From: Parapedobacter luteus
GTDB lineage: Bacteria > Bacteroidota > Bacteroidia > Sphingobacteriales > Sphingobacteriaceae
Direction of reading: 5' to 3'
Length of the DNA: 64,000 nt
Assembly (NCBI RefSeq): GCF_900168055.1
Contig: NZ_FUYS01000011.1
Span: 1-64,000 of the forward strand
In this document: piece after piece, positions 25,092 to 31,106 of the stretch
Position numbering within the stretch: the first letter of the stretch is position 1
Layout: the number at the start of each line of letters is the position of its first letter
Notes under the pieces: generated by a model
Told to the model about the DNA's origin: nothing
Database searches by the model: none
The model's input: the letters and a program-made list of their open reading frames with translations, nothing else
Translations under genes and position numbers: made by a program

Positions 25092-25215
25092 TAATTCCCA
25101 AAATCTCACAGCGGGATTTAGACTTGCGCAGTTGGCCTTCCACGACAGCTACCTTTGCCGCCTGAAGCAGTACCTGTTCATTTTCCATTACTTCTGAAAG
25201 ATGTGCTGCCTGCTG
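25092..25215 (-). pseudogene. C-terminal remnant of a toxin-antitoxin antitoxin
   Basis: Minus-strand translation gives LSEVMENEQVLLQAAKVAVV then EGQLRKSKSRCEILG. This aligns with the C-terminus of the intact antitoxin at 26083 (ISEKEQVLLRRAEADIAEGR, then LHKFKSHREILG). The N-terminal half is missing, and the fragment abuts the last degenerate repeat of array 1. No toxin remnant follows. Confidence 0.65.
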
Positions 25216-25218
25216 AAA

Positions 25219-25625
25219 CACCTTTCAAATTGGGAGCTGTAACACCAGAAAGAAATATCGAATCCGCTCTCATATTGTATATACCTTTCAAATTGGGATC
25301 TGCAACACCGTATGAGGTTTGACGAATATGAGAAGAAAATTGTATATACCTTTCAAATTGGGATCTGCAACACCTAGCCAAGCTTGAAGCAAGGGTTGAC
25401 CAGCATTGTATATACCTTTCAAATTGGGATCTGCAACACCCAGTAAATACGTTCTTTATGTTGGATTGAAGTTGTATATACCTTTCAAATTGGGATCTGC
25501 AACACCTGACATTGCTTTCTTATCTAAGTTCAACAAGTTGTATATACCTTTCAAATTGTGGTCTGTAACACCAATCACACCCCTAGCACAACACATAATT
25601 GAGTTGTATATACCTTTCAAATTGG
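25219..25625 (-). CRISPR. Repeat-spacer array 1 (7 repeats, 6 spacers)
   Basis: Repeats of 36 bases start at 25274, 25339, 25405, 25471, 25537 and 25603 (plus strand: GTTGTATATACC, TTTCAAATT, then a variable part ending AACACC), with a degenerate end copy at 25221-25246. Spacers are 27-30 bases. Array 1 uses mainly the GGGATCTGC sub-type. Read on the minus strand, the repeat ends in TATACAAC before each spacer, and the first repeat (25603) is fused to the tracr-like element. Two repeat-spacer units are identical to units in array 3. Confidence 0.95.
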
Positions 25626-25735
25626 TTTCCACCACTACAGCAAGTTAGCGAATAAGCAAATTCGCAATAGAATAAAGTATTCAGTGAGTGTTAACCTGAC
25701 CTCACCTTGCGGCTGTACAAGCAGCCTCAAAGATT
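25626..25735 (-). ncRNA. tracrRNA-like element 1, fused to array 1
   Basis: On the minus strand the element reads GAGGCTGCTTGTACAGCC (hairpin at plus 25711-25726), then a GTGAG/CTCAC stem (25701-25705 with 25684-25688), then AATACTTTATT (25671-25681), then a GCGAAT/ATTCGC hairpin (25648-25665), then runs into the first repeat. The first hairpin closely resembles the GGCTGCTTGCATCAGCC hairpin of the Un1Cas12f1 tracrRNA as I recall it. ATACTTT can pair with AAAGGTAT in the minus-sense repeat, as an anti-repeat would. The RNA may act as a natural single guide for the first spacer. Confidence 0.75.
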
Positions 25736-26292: not shown

Positions 26293-26337
26293 ATGAGTCA
26301 CGTTTAAAACAAAGATACCGATGAATTATCTTTTTTT

Positions 26338-27069
26338 AAAACACCTTTCAAATTGGGGCCACTAACAACCAAATAAACTCCTGATAATGAGTATTTCACG
26401 TTGTATATACCTTTCAAATTATGATGATCTGTAATACCTTTTTTCAAAAACCGACCCGTTGGCCAACGGTTGTATATACCTTTCAAATTGTGGTCTCTAA
26501 CACCTGTCTATTTCAATTAGTTACATGCTCATGAGTTGTATATACCTTTCAAATTGTGGTCAGTAACACCTATTTCAGGCGGATCCTGTGCAATCAAATA
26601 GTTGTATAAACTTTCAAATTTGGATCTGTAACACCTTCCTCGCCCGCAAGGAAAAGCAACAAGCAGTTGTATATACCTTCAAATTGGGGTCTGTAACGCT
26701 GCACAGAATTGGACATTTCTATATCGACTGTTGTATATACTTTCAATTGGCGTCAGTAACACCATACCGCTTGATAAATTCTGTTGTATATACCTTTCAA
26801 ATTGTGGTCATTAACACCGGTGTTTTTGAAAGCACTTTATTCGGGAGCGTTGTATATACCTTTCAAATTGTGGCCTGTAACACCAATTGATGGTACCGCA
26901 AAATGTGATACCTAGTTATATATACCCTTCAAATTGTGGTCTGTAACACCGCGCGCTGTGTTTGACGGAGATATCCCAGAGTTGTATATACCTTTCAAAT
27001 TTGGGTCTGTAAGACCTCAAACGAAATTGGCGACAGAAATACGTTGGTTGTAAATACCTTACAAATTGG
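26338..27069 (-). CRISPR. Repeat-spacer array 2 (12 repeats, 11 spacers, degenerate)
   Basis: Repeats start at 26400, 26469, 26535, 26601, 26666, 26730, 26783, 26849, 26915, 26981 and 27047, with a decayed end copy at 26338-26370. Repeat lengths vary: 39 bases at 26400 (three-base insertion), 35 at 26601 and 26666, 34 at 26730. Most spacers are 30 bases; the one at 26764-26782 has only 19. The repeat at 26666 ends AACGCT rather than AACACC. Read on the minus strand, the array follows tracr-like element 2. Confidence 0.95.
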
Positions 27070-27175
27070 TTTCCACCACTACGGCAAGTTAGCGAATAAG
27101 CAAATTCGCAATAGAATAAAGTATTCAGTGAATGTCAACCTGACCTCACCCTGCGGCTGTACAAGCAGCCGTCGC
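27070..27175 (-). ncRNA. tracrRNA-like element 2, fused to array 2
   Basis: This copy is nearly identical to element 1 from the half repeat through GGCTGTACAAGCAGCC (plus strand), including the GCGAAT/ATTCGC hairpin and AATAAAGTATTC anti-repeat. One change (GTGAA for GTGAG) shortens the second stem. The sequence upstream on the minus strand diverges immediately, so any promoter must differ from that of element 1. Confidence 0.72.
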
Positions 27176-27185
27176 ATTATCACAC

Positions 27186-27590
27186 TTATTTCCACACCTC
27201 CAATTCGCTATAATTTGCAATTTTGCCAAAATCGCGATCCGAGTGGACAAGCGGAGTCGAAAACCAAATTGCATAATAAGCAATTAAGCAGTCGTTACTT
27301 TTACGAATAGTAACCCCTCGCTTTCGTAACGAGCGATATAAATCGGCCGCCCCAACGGCAGCTTCATAAGCTGGCAATTCTAATAATCGGAAATACGACA
27401 GTGTTTCTCTAACGTCAATATAGGTACTGTCTGTACGGATCCCTTGGAGAATTTCTTGTAGGATGGTTGGAGTAAGCAGCACCTCGTCATCAGCTAAAAC
27501 ATATTCTTCCAATAACCTCGCTTCGTGTGTTTCCTTTTTGTTGAGAAAATCAATCCAAACAGAGGTATCAAAAATTAACGGCTCATTCAT
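27186..27590 (-). CDS. VapC-type PIN-domain ribonuclease toxin
   Basis: The 134-residue protein (ATG at 27590) has the PIN acidic set: Asp in IFDTSVWIDFLN, Glu in TILQEILQGI, Asp in SNDCLIAYYA and Asp in VHSDRDFGKIA. VapC toxins cleave tRNA or rRNA. The start overlaps the vapB stop by four bases (ATGA). All catalytic residues appear intact, unlike the second module nearby. It lies between array 3 and tracr-like element 2. Confidence 0.9.
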   Translation of the reverse strand: MNEPLIFDTSVWIDFLNKKETHEARLLEEYVLADDEVLLTPTILQEILQGIRTDSTYIDVRETLSYFRLLELPAYEAAVGAADLYRSLRKRGVTIRKSNDCLIAYYAIWFSTPLVHSDRDFGKIANYSELEVWK

Positions 27591-27778
27591 AGACTGCGCA
27601 TCTGCTCCAAATTGCCCTCCCACGTTCCCTTACCGCGGATAGACAATAGTTTCTTCCGCTTCAACGAGGCAACGTATTGTTTAAGCGCTTCGTGCACGAC
27701 GTCCTTTTTTGTTTTCAGATTACTGATTTGTAGCGCTTGCTTAACCAGTTGGTCATCTAATTCAATGTTGGTACGCAT
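27587..27778 (-). CDS. VapB-type antitoxin
   Basis: The 63-residue protein starts RTNIELDDQLVKQALQISNL, a ribbon-helix-helix DNA-binding region of the VapB (DUF2191-like) type, followed by a C-terminal toxin-binding tail containing GKGTWEGNLEQM. It should neutralise the overlapping VapC and repress its own promoter. Confidence 0.88.
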   Translation of the reverse strand: MRTNIELDDQLVKQALQISNLKTKKDVVHEALKQYVASLKRKKLLSIRGKGTWEGNLEQMRSL

Positions 27779-27858: not shown

Positions 27859-28860
27859 GGACACATCTTAAATTGGGTCCTGTAAACCCCATTATGCTTT
27901 TTGGCAAGGCAACCACTAGTTATATATACCTTTCAAATTGGGGTCTGTAACACCTAGACGTTTTATCTGAAAGATTGGCTGATGGTTGTAAATACCTTTC
28001 AAATTGGGGTCTGTAACACCGGGCCTACACGGAGACCCAGTTCTTGCACCGTTGTATATACCTTTCAAATTATGATCTGTAACACCCGTACATAAAGCGA
28101 TATGACATTATGTGCAGTTGTAAATACCTTTCAAATTGTGGTCTCTAACACCACCTATTGATATTGCAAACATCGCTTAATACCTGTTGTAAATGCCTTT
28201 CAAATTGTGGTCAGTAACACCTTCAGAAATTCAGGGATGAGAATCGCAATAGTTGTATATACCTTTCAAATTGGGATCTGCAACACCTCGTATGGGACGA
28301 CAATCCTCTCCGAATCCATTGTATATACCTTTCAAATTGGGATCTGCAACACCATAGAGCTGCTTATGGTAAAGAAATCCTGCATTGTATATACCTTTCA
28401 AATTGGGATCTGCAACACCCAGTAAATACGTTCTTTATGTTGGATTGAAGTTGTATATACCTTTCAAATTGGGATCTGCAACACCTGACATTGCTTTCTT
28501 ATCTAAGTTCAACAAGTTGTATATACCTTCAAATTTGGGTCTGTAACACCTTGTTTCAAAAACCGACCGCTGGGCCAAAGATTATATATACCTTTCAAAT
28601 TGTGGCCTGTAACACCTCCATTGCTAGGTTCTATCAAGAAAATGCAGTTGTATATACCTTTCAAATTGGGGGCTGTAACACCTTTGGGTGTGCTACTAAA
28701 GCAAGCCCTAGTTGTATATACCTTTCAAATAGGGGTCTGTAACACCGGAGGTTTACGGCATCCGCAACCTTAATGGGTTGTATATACCTTTAAATCGGGG
28801 CTGCAACATCACATTATACTTCCGACGCCAGAGCTATTTATTAGTTACAAATACCCGCCA
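27859..28860 (-). CRISPR. Repeat-spacer array 3 (16 repeats, 15 spacers)
   Basis: Repeats start at 27919, 27985, 28051, 28117, 28186, 28252, 28318, 28384, 28450, 28516, 28581, 28647, 28711 and 28777, with decayed copies at 27859 and 28844. Spacers are mostly 30 bases (28-33). The four units from 28252 use the GGGATCTGC sub-type shared with array 1. The spacers at 28420-28449 and 28486-28515 are identical to those at 25441 and 25507, and the spacer at 28551 is a diverged copy of the one at 26439. The array lies directly downstream of tracr-like element 3 on the minus strand. Confidence 0.95.
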
Positions 28861-28965
28861 AGCGCCATCATGGGCTTTCTGTTGAAAAGGCAAAAGTAAA
28901 ATAAGGTATTCAGTGAGTGTCAACCTGACCTCACCCTGCGGCTGTACAAGCAGCCTCTAACATTT
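28861..28965 (-). ncRNA. tracrRNA-like element 3, next to the Cas12f-like gene
   Basis: Minus-strand order is GAGGCTGCTTGTACAGCC hairpin, GTGAG/CTCAC stem, then AATACCTTATTT. Here ATACCTT pairs perfectly with AAGGTAT of the repeat. After that the sequence differs from copies 1 and 2, and the adjoining repeat at 28844 is decayed, so this copy may act in trans as a true tracrRNA. It begins about 25 bases after the Cas12f-like stop codon and may be made from the same transcript. Confidence 0.72.
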
Positions 28966-28984: not shown

Positions 28985-30079
28985 CTACTCCTCAATCACA
29001 TTTATCCCCGCCTTCTTGGCCTTATAGGCAATCTTTTCCTTCAGCCCGTAATAGCTCCAGTTGCGGAGCAAGAACTCCTCGTCCTTCGCCACCTCCTCTT
29101 TTTGCTGTTGGTTCACCAGAAGCAATGTGCCTGCCTCAGACTTCACGCACAGGTCAATCAGCCTTCGGCTGTACAGGTGCAGCCGGTTGTCGACATACCG
29201 CTTTTCTTTAGCATCCCAATCTTCCAGACTTTTCAGCTTGCGCCGGCGGCCTCTGCCCGGGCGGTTGTACGTGGAGCCCCGCTGCAGGCGGTGCCGCGCG
29301 GCCTGAATGGCCAGCCTACGGTGCAGGAATTCCTCCTTGTTACCAATTTGGAACTGGGCCTTCCCTACCTTCACCACGATGGGGTGTTCGATGGAGAGCG
29401 ACGCTTCGGCGATTACCGTATCTTTCAACCGGTGCTCGTCGCGCTCCATCTCAAAGGCCGCGAGCAGGTACAGCTTGCCGTTATCGATTTTCAGCGAGCT
29501 GGCGCAAAGCTTGAGCGTACCGGCTACATGGCGCTGGATGAGCACTCGTTTGTCCGTCTTGTCCTTGCCCAAATAGGTCTTGAACGGAATTTTGAACAAT
29601 GTGAACCGGAACTCCCGCTGCTTCTCGTCGGCCACGAACTTCAGCAGTTTGCCCGAAAAGGGCAGCGGGATGCTGCGCTTATAGTTGCGCAGCGACTTCT
29701 CCCCTTTCCAATACGCGCTGCGTTCGGTGCTGTAAACGCTGTAGAGCGAATTGTTCAGGTTGGAAAAGATGTCCGAGGGCATCTTGCCCAGCAGCTTGGC
29801 GGACAGCACGCGGTAGGTGGTGCTCATCCGCGAGGTGTTCAAAATGCCCCCGGCATCCTTGGCACGGTCGGCCAGCTTCACTTTCACCTCATCGGTAAAG
29901 TAAATCAGGTCTTTCACCCGATCCTGTACATACAGGTGGGTGAAAATCAGGTTGGCGGCCTGAAAAGCCATAAACTGCCATTCGTACAGCTGTTTGTAGT
30001 GCGCATCTTTCTGCTCCTTGTCTTCGCAGTCTACGTATATCTGTATTTTCCGTGTCAGGATGATGGTCTTCTTTTCCAT
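28985..30079 (-). CDS. Nuclease-dead Cas12f/TnpB-like protein
   Basis: The 364-residue protein ends with LLRNWSYYGLKEKIAYKAKK, the helix found before RuvC-III in TnpB and Cas12f, and has the basic RuvC insert HRLQRGSTYNRPGRGRRRKL. The RuvC-I site, normally DxG, reads SIEHPIVV (near residue 231). The RuvC-II Glu is replaced in LLLVNQQQ (near 323). The protein stops about where the zinc ribbon and RuvC-III Asp would begin. It should bind guide RNA and DNA without cutting. The gene starts two bases after the sigma-factor stop, and guide modules follow, so a role in directing that sigma factor is likely. Family assignment rests on motif reading, not on a search. Confidence 0.8.
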   Translation of the reverse strand: MEKKTIILTRKIQIYVDCEDKEQKDAHYKQLYEWQFMAFQAANLIFTHLYVQDRVKDLIYFTDEVKVKLADRAKDAGGILNTSRMSTTYRVLSAKLLGKMPSDIFSNLNNSLYSVYSTERSAYWKGEKSLRNYKRSIPLPFSGKLLKFVADEKQREFRFTLFKIPFKTYLGKDKTDKRVLIQRHVAGTLKLCASSLKIDNGKLYLLAAFEMERDEHRLKDTVIAEASLSIEHPIVVKVGKAQFQIGNKEEFLHRRLAIQAARHRLQRGSTYNRPGRGRRRKLKSLEDWDAKEKRYVDNRLHLYSRRLIDLCVKSEAGTLLLVNQQQKEEVAKDEEFLLRNWSYYGLKEKIAYKAKKAGINVIEE

Positions 30080-30081
30080 GG

Positions 30082-30900
30082 TCAGGCCGATTGTCTCCCC
30101 TTCTTAATGGCGGCGTGTGCCTGTACAAACAATGATTTCACCTTGGCGTCGTCCAGTTGCAGCGCCTCGGCGATTTCCTCGAAGGAATATTGCAGGTCAT
30201 ACCGCATGGCCAGTACCTGCGCCTGCTCATCGCTGAGCATGCCTTCGGCGACGAGCGGCTTGGTGCGGGCGGCGCTGTCCAGTTTGGTCGTGTCCGACAG
30301 TGCGGCTTTCAGGTTGGCGATGCACTGCTCCACGCGCTGGGCCACTTCGTAGTCCGAGATGCCGCCCAAATGGTAGGCGATGCGCTCGTTGTTGAATCCG
30401 TACCGCAGGCACAGCCGGATAAACAACTGCTGCTGTGCGGTCAGGTTGGGCAACAGCCCATTGATTTGCTCCAGTTGCCGCTGTTTTTCTGCTTCCAGCT
30501 GTTCGAGGTAGACCACATCTGCCTCCTCTTCTCCCTCTATTTCATAACCCAGCATGAACTCCTGGAAATCTTCGATGCCATCCAGCCGCAGCATACTCCG
30601 GTGGAAGCGGTTGGCGGTTTTGCGGTAATACGCCATGCCGGCTTCGCGAAGCTGGCTGCCGAGGAATTCGTGCAGGTGCGGTACGTCGCGGATGATATCG
30701 CGCATGAGCCACAGCCGGAGAAACGCTTCCTGTGCGATAACATGGGCTATGACGTCGTCTTTGACGAACCGCTCGGCCCGCCAGGCATAGTAGTTATAAT
30801 AGGCCCGGTAGAAATAATTCAGCCCGGCTTCATCGCCAGCTTTGAGCGCGTCGAAAAATCGTTCGGCGTTTTTCTTGGTACGGTAGGTCGATGCGTGCAT
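30082..30900 (-). CDS. ECF-like RNA polymerase sigma factor with a possible second sigma-4-like domain
   Basis: From the ATG at 30900 the protein has 272 residues (a TTG at 30921 would add seven). Residues about 12-90 fit sigma region 2: AERFFDALKAGDEAGLNYFY, then VIAQEAFLRLWLMRD. Two later helical regions look like sigma region 4: LRYGFNNERIAYHLGGISDY (about 155-175) and LSDEQAQVLAMRYDLQYSFE with EIAEALQLDDAKVKSLFVQA (about 225-270). A standard ECF sigma has one. The gene is tightly coupled to the dead Cas12f-like gene and preceded by a small XRE gene. I infer that it is recruited to guide-specified promoters. Confidence 0.8.
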   Translation of the reverse strand: MHASTYRTKKNAERFFDALKAGDEAGLNYFYRAYYNYYAWRAERFVKDDVIAHVIAQEAFLRLWLMRDIIRDVPHLHEFLGSQLREAGMAYYRKTANRFHRSMLRLDGIEDFQEFMLGYEIEGEEEADVVYLEQLEAEKQRQLEQINGLLPNLTAQQQLFIRLCLRYGFNNERIAYHLGGISDYEVAQRVEQCIANLKAALSDTTKLDSAARTKPLVAEGMLSDEQAQVLAMRYDLQYSFEEIAEALQLDDAKVKSLFVQAHAAIKKGRQSA

Positions 30901-30917
30901 GGCGCGTAAAAATTTCG

Positions 30918-31106
30918 TCAATCGTTGATGTTTAGTTCAGACTTCAGTTTCTTAATCACCTCGACACCTTTATAGTGTCCATTCACGGTGTTTGTCAGCA
31001 CTTCCCTGCTGACGCCGATTTTCTCGGCAATCTCTTTGATGGTGCGCCGGGATTTCACGATCTCGAGCTTCAGCGGCAAATTCTCGGGATACCTCGCTTT
31101 CTTCAT
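30918..31106 (-). CDS. Small XRE/HTH protein, first gene of the sigma-Cas12f operon
   Basis: The 62-residue protein holds one helix-turn-helix: VKSRRTIKEIAEKIGVSREV, then LTNTVNGHYKG. It has no other domain. Its stop lies 17 bases before the sigma-factor ATG (or overlaps the TTG). It may regulate its own operon through the TTGTGA-type repeats in the divergent region or take part in the complex. Confidence 0.8.
   Translation of the reverse strand: MKKARYPENLPLKLEIVKSRRTIKEIAEKIGVSREVLTNTVNGHYKGVEVIKKLKSELNIND

What the first reader, a model, noticed from the sequence alone, without database searches (positions are those of the whole stretch)
28551..28580. Diverged twin spacers in arrays 2 and 3
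The spacers at 26439-26468 and 28551-28580 match at 25 of 30 positions (both contain TTTCAAAAACCGACC). Acquired spacers do not arise as mutated relatives. This looks like duplication followed by drift or by tracking of paralogous or changing host targets, as expected of regulatory guides.
Basis: partly seen in the sequence, partly recalled or inferred. Interest (0 to 1): 0.65.

Follow-up and report, generated by a model that had tools for sequence, protein, structure and literature searches.

The report
Twin guides for nutrient-receptor operon promoter
Two similar CRISPR-like spacers in this Parapedobacter genome do not look like phage memories: they fit the same spot just upstream of a family of nutrient-uptake (SusC/SusD) operons and sit next to a cut-dead Cas12f and its partner sigma factor, so they most likely tell RNA polymerase where to start.

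Summary
In detail: 26439-26468 and 28551-28580 match at 25 of 30 positions, far above chance. The arrays read on the minus strand. Beside them lie a nuclease-dead Cas12f (28985-30079; 427 bits to PDB 9n9c) and a sigma factor (30082-30921; matches RpoE of the same PDB set), a known pairing for RNA-guided transcription. The 28551 guide has a host target: 28/30 at contig 11:46283, 63 bp upstream of a thioredoxin-SusC-SusD operon, and 28/30 at the homologous P. composti site. That site belongs to 14 related promoters in 8 of 9 genus genomes; both twins align to it in one register. Sister-species guides hit the same promoters. All 18 spacers hitting operon or Trx loci lie on the operon's sense strand; target flanks share 5'-TYYR. 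The array block has no phage or plasmid match; twin patterns have none in viral contigs. So the "regulatory guide" reading is supported. Not shown: duplication as origin, or a current host target for the 26439 twin (best 24/30 at the same site; nothing closer in 301 genomes).

The parts
28551..28580 (-). Guide A3 (twin 1), array 3
   Evidence: 28/30 at own genome contig 11:46283 (63 bp upstream of Trx-SusC-SusD) and 28/30 at P. composti contig 32
26439..26468 (-). Guide A2 (twin 2), array 2
   Evidence: 25/30 to A3; aligns to the same promoter-model positions (77-105; A3 77-107)
27859..28810 (-). Array 3 (36-nt degenerate repeats, about 30-nt spacers)
26336..27077 (-). Array 2
25212..25633 (-). 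Array 1; shares two identical spacers with array 3 (25441-25470 = 28420-28449; 25507-25536 = 28486-28515)
28904..28957 (-). Core of the guide-RNA scaffold (tracr-like, two hairpins) heading array 3
   Evidence: conserved in all 10 loci compared
27047..27172 (-). Guide-RNA scaffold fused to the first repeat of array 2
25603..25728 (-). Guide-RNA scaffold fused to the first repeat of array 1
28985..30079 (-). dCas12f, 364 aa, RuvC residues replaced or missing
   Evidence: 427 bits to PDB 9n9c 'Nuclease-deactivated Cas12f'
30082..30921 (-). ECF-type sigma factor, partner of dCas12f
   Evidence: 144 bits to 9n9q_C 'RpoE'; Sigma70_r4 and TIGR02937

Best explanation
The twins are two versions of one guide of a dCas12f-sigma-factor RNA-guided transcription system. 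The arrays are transcribed on the minus strand from a scaffold RNA. Nuclease-dead Cas12f carries the guide to a site about 63 bp upstream of a thioredoxin-SusC-SusD operon, and the partner sigma factor brings RNA polymerase, which starts transcription a fixed distance downstream. The promoter site exists as a diverged family across paralogous and orthologous operons. A3 fits the allele now in this genome and in P. composti. A2 fits another, unsampled allele or an older version. Shown here by sequence: the system genes, the scaffold, the host target and its position, the shared register of both twins on the promoter family, strand bias, flanking motif, and absence of phage matches in what was searched. 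Inferred: that binding activates transcription in this organism, the start site, and that the twins diverged by following targets rather than by neutral decay.
For: Adjacent dCas12f and sigma factor match the proteins of one PDB set. A conserved scaffold heads each array and occurs in all 10 loci compared. A3 target in host: E 5.5e-5 in the own-genome search, 28/30, 63 bp from the ATG of Trx (AhpC-TSA)-SusC (TIGR04056, 502 bits)-SusD. The P. composti orthologous site matches A3 at 28/30. A promoter model from 7 sites finds A3 (E 8.7e-5) and A2 (E 0.011) at the same model positions and nothing else in the window below E 8; 14 members were finally found. Guides of other species land on the same promoters: P. 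koreensis L042:11903 (self, 25/30, 70 bp from the start), P. composti L039:11579 (29/30 and 28/30 in two other genomes), P. defluvii L040:11630 (28/30). A P. tibetensis leader guide matches its own promoter at 16 of its first 20 nt, 16 of 30 overall. 23 of 95 distinct candidate spacers (29 window, 66 from six relatives, some of the latter from degenerate units) had a hit of score 16 or more in 110 stretches, versus 0 for reversed spacers. Eighteen of the 23 are on the sense strand of a downstream operon: 14 at loci where SusC was seen, all upstream of the operon's first gene, and 4 in stretches fetched as upstream DNA of a Trx homologue, where only the strand is a test. The 5' flank of 23 best targets is TYYR (position -3 pyrimidine 23/23, -2 20/23, -1 purine 17/23).
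Against: A2 has no own target better than 24/30. Only 2 of 29 window spacers (A3 and the 28420/25441 spacer) have clear targets in the own genome. Many hits lie 0.3-6 kb upstream, inside divergent genes, not at a promoter position. One spacer hits metE and one a YhcG gene with no operon within the stretch fetched. Genome G006 keeps the promoter family but shows no array-like DNA, so the promoter may also work without this system. The variable-column test is weak (P 0.03-0.04), and the test of whether A2's states occur in promoters is not significant (4 of 5, P 0.34). 55 other SusC upstream regions gave nothing above the null. Twins and overlapping guides are not independent counts.
Confidence: 0.76

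Rival explanations
1. One guide was duplicated between arrays and A2 has simply decayed by neutral mutation; only A3 is functional.
For: Arrays 1 and 3 share two identical adjacent spacers, so copying between arrays happens. Many repeats are degenerate. A2 has no good host target.
Against: The neighbours of A2 and A3 differ, so no block duplication is visible. The five differences fall in columns that vary among the 14 promoters more than average (entropy test P about 0.03-0.04), and four of the five A2 states occur in some promoter, though that alone is not significant.
Confidence: 0.2
2. Ordinary CRISPR memory: spacers taken up from DNA of related species or from a mobile SusC/SusD island, with the twins sampled from two homologous islands.
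For: Several spacers match sister species better than the host. Three array-3 spacers match one 2.7-kb stretch of P. composti. Loci carry restriction or defence-like genes (YhcG, HNH, GmrSD). A Cas1 exists elsewhere in the genome. Flanks show a PAM-like TYYR.
Against: The effector has lost its catalytic residues. All 18 spacers at operon or Trx loci are in sense orientation, and the 14 at loci with SusC in view are all upstream of the operon. The twins share one register. No phage or plasmid match of the array block at E up to 0.1, none of the twin patterns in viral contigs.
Confidence: 0.12
3. The guides repress: dCas12f bound at the site blocks the promoter, as in CRISPR interference.
For: The site is conserved in a genome with no array-like DNA, so an independent promoter may be there to block. 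TnpB-derived TldR repressors work this way (PMC13418256, passages seen).
Against: A sigma factor is encoded next to dCas12f and matches the RpoE chain of a PDB entry that also holds the dCas12f. The site lies upstream of, not across, the expected start (inferred).
Confidence: 0.1
4. Chance similarity between two unrelated spacers.
For: None found.
Against: Expected number of such pairs about 8e-8; maximum 18/30 in 300 shuffled sets.
Confidence: 0.001

Closest known systems
dCas12f-sigmaE RNA-guided transcription system (PDB 9n9c, 9n9m, 9n9o, 9n9q; the publications are recalled, not held in the library)
   Same: dCas12f protein (427 bits over its whole length), adjacent ECF sigma factor matching the RpoE chain of 9n9q, scaffold RNA, target upstream of SusC/SusD genes
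   Different: Here guides sit in three arrays with 29 distinct spacers, each array with its own scaffold, while the Pedobacter relatives seem to carry single guides. Native targets show a 5'-TYYR flank; a minimal 5'-G is what I recall for the published systems. Guide versions diverge with their targets across species.
TldR (TnpB-like nuclease-dead repressors; PMC13418256, passages seen)
   Same: Nuclease-dead RNA-guided DNA binder used for host gene control
   Different: TldRs repress and are TnpB-derived; here a sigma factor is the partner and guides lie in arrays
Type V-F CRISPR-Cas12f
   Same: Cas12f homology, repeat-spacer arrays, tracr-like scaffold, T-rich 5' flank of targets (the flank of the nucleases is recalled)
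   Different: Catalytic residues lost, no cas1 beside the arrays, host-operon targets instead of phage

Membership tests
dCas12f-sigmaE RNA-guided transcription | Cas12f homologue with inactivated RuvC | tested here: met
   Alignment: the active relative reads VDLGI where the query reads ASLSI; the relative's MER segment falls partly in a gap of the query; the query ends soon after (364 of 506 aa). That these are the catalytic residues is recalled
dCas12f-sigmaE RNA-guided transcription | ECF sigma factor encoded next to dCas12f | tested here: met
   30082-30921, 2 bp from dCas12f
dCas12f-sigmaE RNA-guided transcription | Guide RNA scaffold at the locus | tested here: met
   Two-hairpin element in all 10 loci; expression not tested
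dCas12f-sigmaE RNA-guided transcription | Guides target upstream of SusC/SusD-type operons | tested here: met
   A3 in the host; 14 of 14 spacers at loci with SusC in view lie upstream and sense; 5 of 23 matched spacers hit places without the operon in view
dCas12f-sigmaE RNA-guided transcription | Target-adjacent motif 5'-G (recalled) | tested here: inconclusive
   Position -1 is A 11, G 6, T 4, C 2 of 23; the motif seen is TYYR
dCas12f-sigmaE RNA-guided transcription | Guide-dependent transcription start at fixed distance | not testable with these tools
   needs RNA data
Adaptive CRISPR-Cas immunity (type V-F) | Active nuclease | tested here: not met
   by sequence only
Adaptive CRISPR-Cas immunity (type V-F) | Spacers match phages or plasmids | tested here: not met
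   Array block against phage and plasmid records, E up to 0.1: no match; viral contigs were scanned for the twin patterns only: 0
Adaptive CRISPR-Cas immunity (type V-F) | Adaptation genes cas1/cas2 at the locus | tested here: not met
   The only Cas1 match in the genome is on contig 24; the nine proteins scanned around the arrays are not cas1/cas2; cas2 was not searched genome-wide

The most novel reading that the evidence does not exclude
The arrays are a heritable library of guide alleles that chases one horizontally exchanged, paralogous operon family. Each Parapedobacter lineage keeps guides to the alleles it has or had of the Trx-SusC-SusD promoter and its upstream island. Guides change base by base with their targets, always on the operon's sense strand, without adaptation genes at the locus. 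The twins are two successive or coexisting entries for the same promoter address.
Probability: 0.42. Interest if true: 0.78.

Novelty: new variant of a known kind. Interest (0 to 1): 0.64.

Why it matters
It links array spacers of a dCas12f-sigma system to defined host promoters. It shows recurrent guides from several species on one promoter family, and makes guide-target coevolution testable: whether guides drift with their promoters, how new guides arise without Cas1/Cas2 at the locus, and whether bacteria use arrays as an address book for choosing surface receptors.

Tried and rejected
Phage or plasmid origin: exact degenerate patterns of the twins in viral contigs gave 0. Blastn of the A2 surroundings against phages and of the A3 surroundings against plasmids gave only chance-level hits (E 0.3 and above). 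The whole array block gave none in either at E up to 0.1. The other window spacers were not searched in viral contigs.

Contig 15:450083 as a second target of A3 (23/30): E 2.4, inside a coding region, orthologue in P. composti the same; treated as chance.

A2 seed search in the own genome: 12 matches (itself included), 19 in the reversed-pattern control, so chance. A2 core in 301 family genomes: only the two spacers and the P. composti A3 site, 3 mismatches.

General targeting of SusC genes: 148 SusC candidates in the own genome, 56 scored and listed; 55 of the 56 had 6 kb upstream scanned. None scored above the reversed-spacer null (maximum 15 in both) and none belongs to the promoter family. 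One (contig 7:428) was left out because it starts at a contig edge. The remaining candidates were not looked at.

Trx homologues: 54 matches in nine genomes; upstream DNA of 40 was fetched for this, 7 were already in hand, 7 of the weaker ones were left.

Positional homology of spacers between arrays 2 and 3, or 1 and 3, by repeat variants: not significant (ranks 42-357 of 463).

Literature: searches (listings only) and look-up 71 did not find the primary dCas12f-sigma papers in the held library. What I say about them beyond PDB names is recalled.

Full report
What was claimed. Two spacers, 26439-26468 and 28551-28580, match at 25 of 30 positions. The match is real: 25 of 30 ungapped, best pair among 29 distinct window spacers, against a maximum of 18 in 300 shuffled sets. 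Three terminal degenerate units of the 34 parsed were dropped, and two spacers occur twice.

What the locus is. The arrays are read on the minus strand. Each is headed, on that strand, by a conserved two-hairpin scaffold (GGCTGCTTGTACAGCC..., then GGTGAGGTCAG...CTCACT) that in arrays 1 and 2 runs directly into the first repeat. The element is present in all 10 loci compared, from seven Parapedobacter (window included) and three Pedobacter genomes. Upstream lie a 364-aa protein matching PDB 9n9c 'Nuclease-deactivated Cas12f' at 427 bits over its whole length and, 2 bp away, a 279-aa sigma factor matching chain C, 'RpoE', of 9n9q at 144 bits (Pfam and NCBIfam). In the alignment with an active relative the query reads ASLSI for VDLGI, and the relative's MER segment falls partly in a gap; that these hold the catalytic residues is recalled. 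This is a dCas12f-sigma RNA-guided transcription locus. The publications on that system are recalled; the library did not hold them. That the window is Parapedobacter follows from the 97% dCas12f match to P. composti and from its same-genus genomes being identical to named Parapedobacter contigs.

Where the guides point. Searching the own genome with the array block gave one strong outside match of a spacer: contig 11:46282-46312 for the 28551 twin (E 5.5e-5), 28 of 30. The guide's first base pairs 63 bp before the ATG of a 437-aa AhpC/TSA-type protein, followed by SusC (TIGR04056, 502 bits) and SusD. In P. composti (G001) the homologous site matches at 28 of 30, 28 in a row, again upstream of Trx-SusC-SusD. 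A second, weaker own target (E 0.05; 25 of 30, with 21 of the first 22) lies about 338 bp upstream of a SusC-SusD pair on contig 10, for the spacer present twice (25441 and 28420).

A promoter family. Seven such upstream regions were aligned and used as a profile. It recognises both twins, in guide orientation and at the same model positions (77-107 and 77-105; E 8.7e-5 and 0.011), and nothing else in the window below E 8. Scanning upstream DNA of 40 further Trx homologues of the genus raised the family to 14 members (E below 1e-15) in 8 of 9 genomes. They share CTAAA-GTA-like, GCAAAT-like and GGTCGGTTTTTGAA-like blocks and a conserved start region. In the own genome the contig-11 and contig-10 operons are members; the 55 other SusC upstream regions scanned are not, and two other Trx upstream regions are not beyond a short match at the start codon in one of them.

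Do the twins follow targets? The five differences lie at guide positions 2, 9, 11, 12 and 28, columns that vary between promoters more than average (P 0.035 on the gapped alignment, 0.032 on anchored sites). Four of the five A2 states occur in some promoter, but so would 60% of random changes, so that test alone says nothing (P 0.34). A2 equals or beats A3 in identity only at the P. tibetensis (23 v 23), P. koreensis (21 v 19) and one G006 site (22 v 21); at the other 11 sites A3 is closer. In the own genome A2's best site is the A3 target, 24 of 30. A pattern search of 301 family genomes found nothing closer than 3 mismatches in 25 outside the array. So following a target variant is plausible but the exact A2 target is missing.

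Sister species do the same. P. koreensis has a guide (L042:11903) on its own copy of the promoter, about ten bases upstream of the twin register and 70 bp from the start. P. composti L039:11579 matches the upstream block of the family at 29/30 and 28/30 in two other genomes. P. defluvii L040:11630 matches the P. koreensis promoter at 28/30. A P. tibetensis leader guide carries GGTCGGTTTTTGAAA; it fits its own promoter at 16 of its first 20 nt but not beyond. Of 95 distinct candidate spacers from the window (29) and six relatives (66, some from degenerate units), 23 have a match of score 16 or more in 110 fetched stretches; reversed spacers gave 0. Eighteen of the 23 are on the sense strand of a downstream operon. 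For 14 of them SusC was seen in the stretch, and all 14 lie upstream of the operon's first gene. The other 4 hit stretches fetched as upstream DNA of a Trx homologue, so there only the strand is informative. Loci were chosen without regard to strand, but the twins and overlapping guides are not independent. The remaining five hit metE (28/30), a YhcG gene (26/30; a Trx homologue lies about 9 kb downstream on the same strand), a GNAT-related gene (29/30, self in P. koreensis), an HTH gene (28/30, a P. koreensis spacer in the window's own genome) and an unassigned ORF (23/30).

Target flank. In the best target of each of the 23 spacers, position -3 is T or C in 23, -2 is T or C in 20, -4 is T in 16, and -1 is A (11) or G (6). 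A2 and A3 share one best site. Both A3 sites have mismatches in guide positions 1-2; read from position 3 their flanks would be TTCA and TTTG (inference). This resembles the T-rich flank of Cas12f nucleases (recalled).

How it most likely works. Guide transcribed with the scaffold; dCas12f binds the site 63 bp upstream; sigma factor recruits polymerase; start near the conserved TAAACCGNTAATAACC block. The last two steps are inferred from the known system. Targets up to about 6 kb upstream inside divergent genes (YhcG, HTH, GNAT-related) are unexplained. They may give read-through into the operon, antisense control of the divergent genes, or be guides to alleles with a different layout.

What speaks against. 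Two of 29 window spacers have clear own targets; ten of 29 have any. Genome G006 has four family promoters but no array-like DNA, so the element may have another use. No expression data exist here.

Verdict. Observation confirmed. Interpretation largely right in kind (regulatory guides to receptor-operon promoters), unproven in its duplication and two-paralogue parts. Scored as a new variant of a known kind, because array-borne, diverging guide families on one promoter family go beyond the single-guide form that the Pedobacter relatives seem to have. That the published work did not already describe such arrays could not be checked.

Noticed in passing
26400-26570 and 28051-28221: Arrays 2 and 3 carry the same three unusual repeat variants in the same order (ATGAT..., TCTCTAACACC, TCAGTAACACC) but with spacers that are not detectably related between them, as if the repeat frame was copied and the spacers replaced.
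   Followed up: partly
25441-25536 and 28420-28515: Two adjacent spacers are identical in arrays 1 and 3 (97% over 159 nt), a recent copying event between arrays.
   Followed up: no
L045:11276 and L046:11275 (Pedobacter): Pedobacter relatives seem to have scaffolds followed by one guide and no array; the guides of two species match at 28/30, another diverging guide pair. P. tibetensis L041:12441 has a scaffold followed by a related sequence (GGGCTGCTGTTA).
   Followed up: partly
L126:10555-13328, L125:4219-5558, L136:5737-8772: The targeted Trx-SusC-SusD operons are preceded by divergent, variable genes that look like defence or restriction cargo (YhcG, HNH, GmrSD, HTH regulators), and several spacers match these genes in antisense.
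   Followed up: partly
27186-27623: A PIN-domain (VapC-like) toxin gene lies between arrays 2 and 3.
   Followed up: no
L034 (own genome contig 24:44409-45107): The only Cas1 match of the genome lies on another contig; no array was seen within the 3.7 kb fetched.
   Followed up: partly
26456-26469: A2 and the adjoining repeat base form a perfect 14-nt palindrome CCGTTGGCCAACGG.
   Followed up: no
26636-26665: This spacer matches the metE coding region of P. composti in antisense (28/30), the one clear housekeeping-gene hit.
   Followed up: partly
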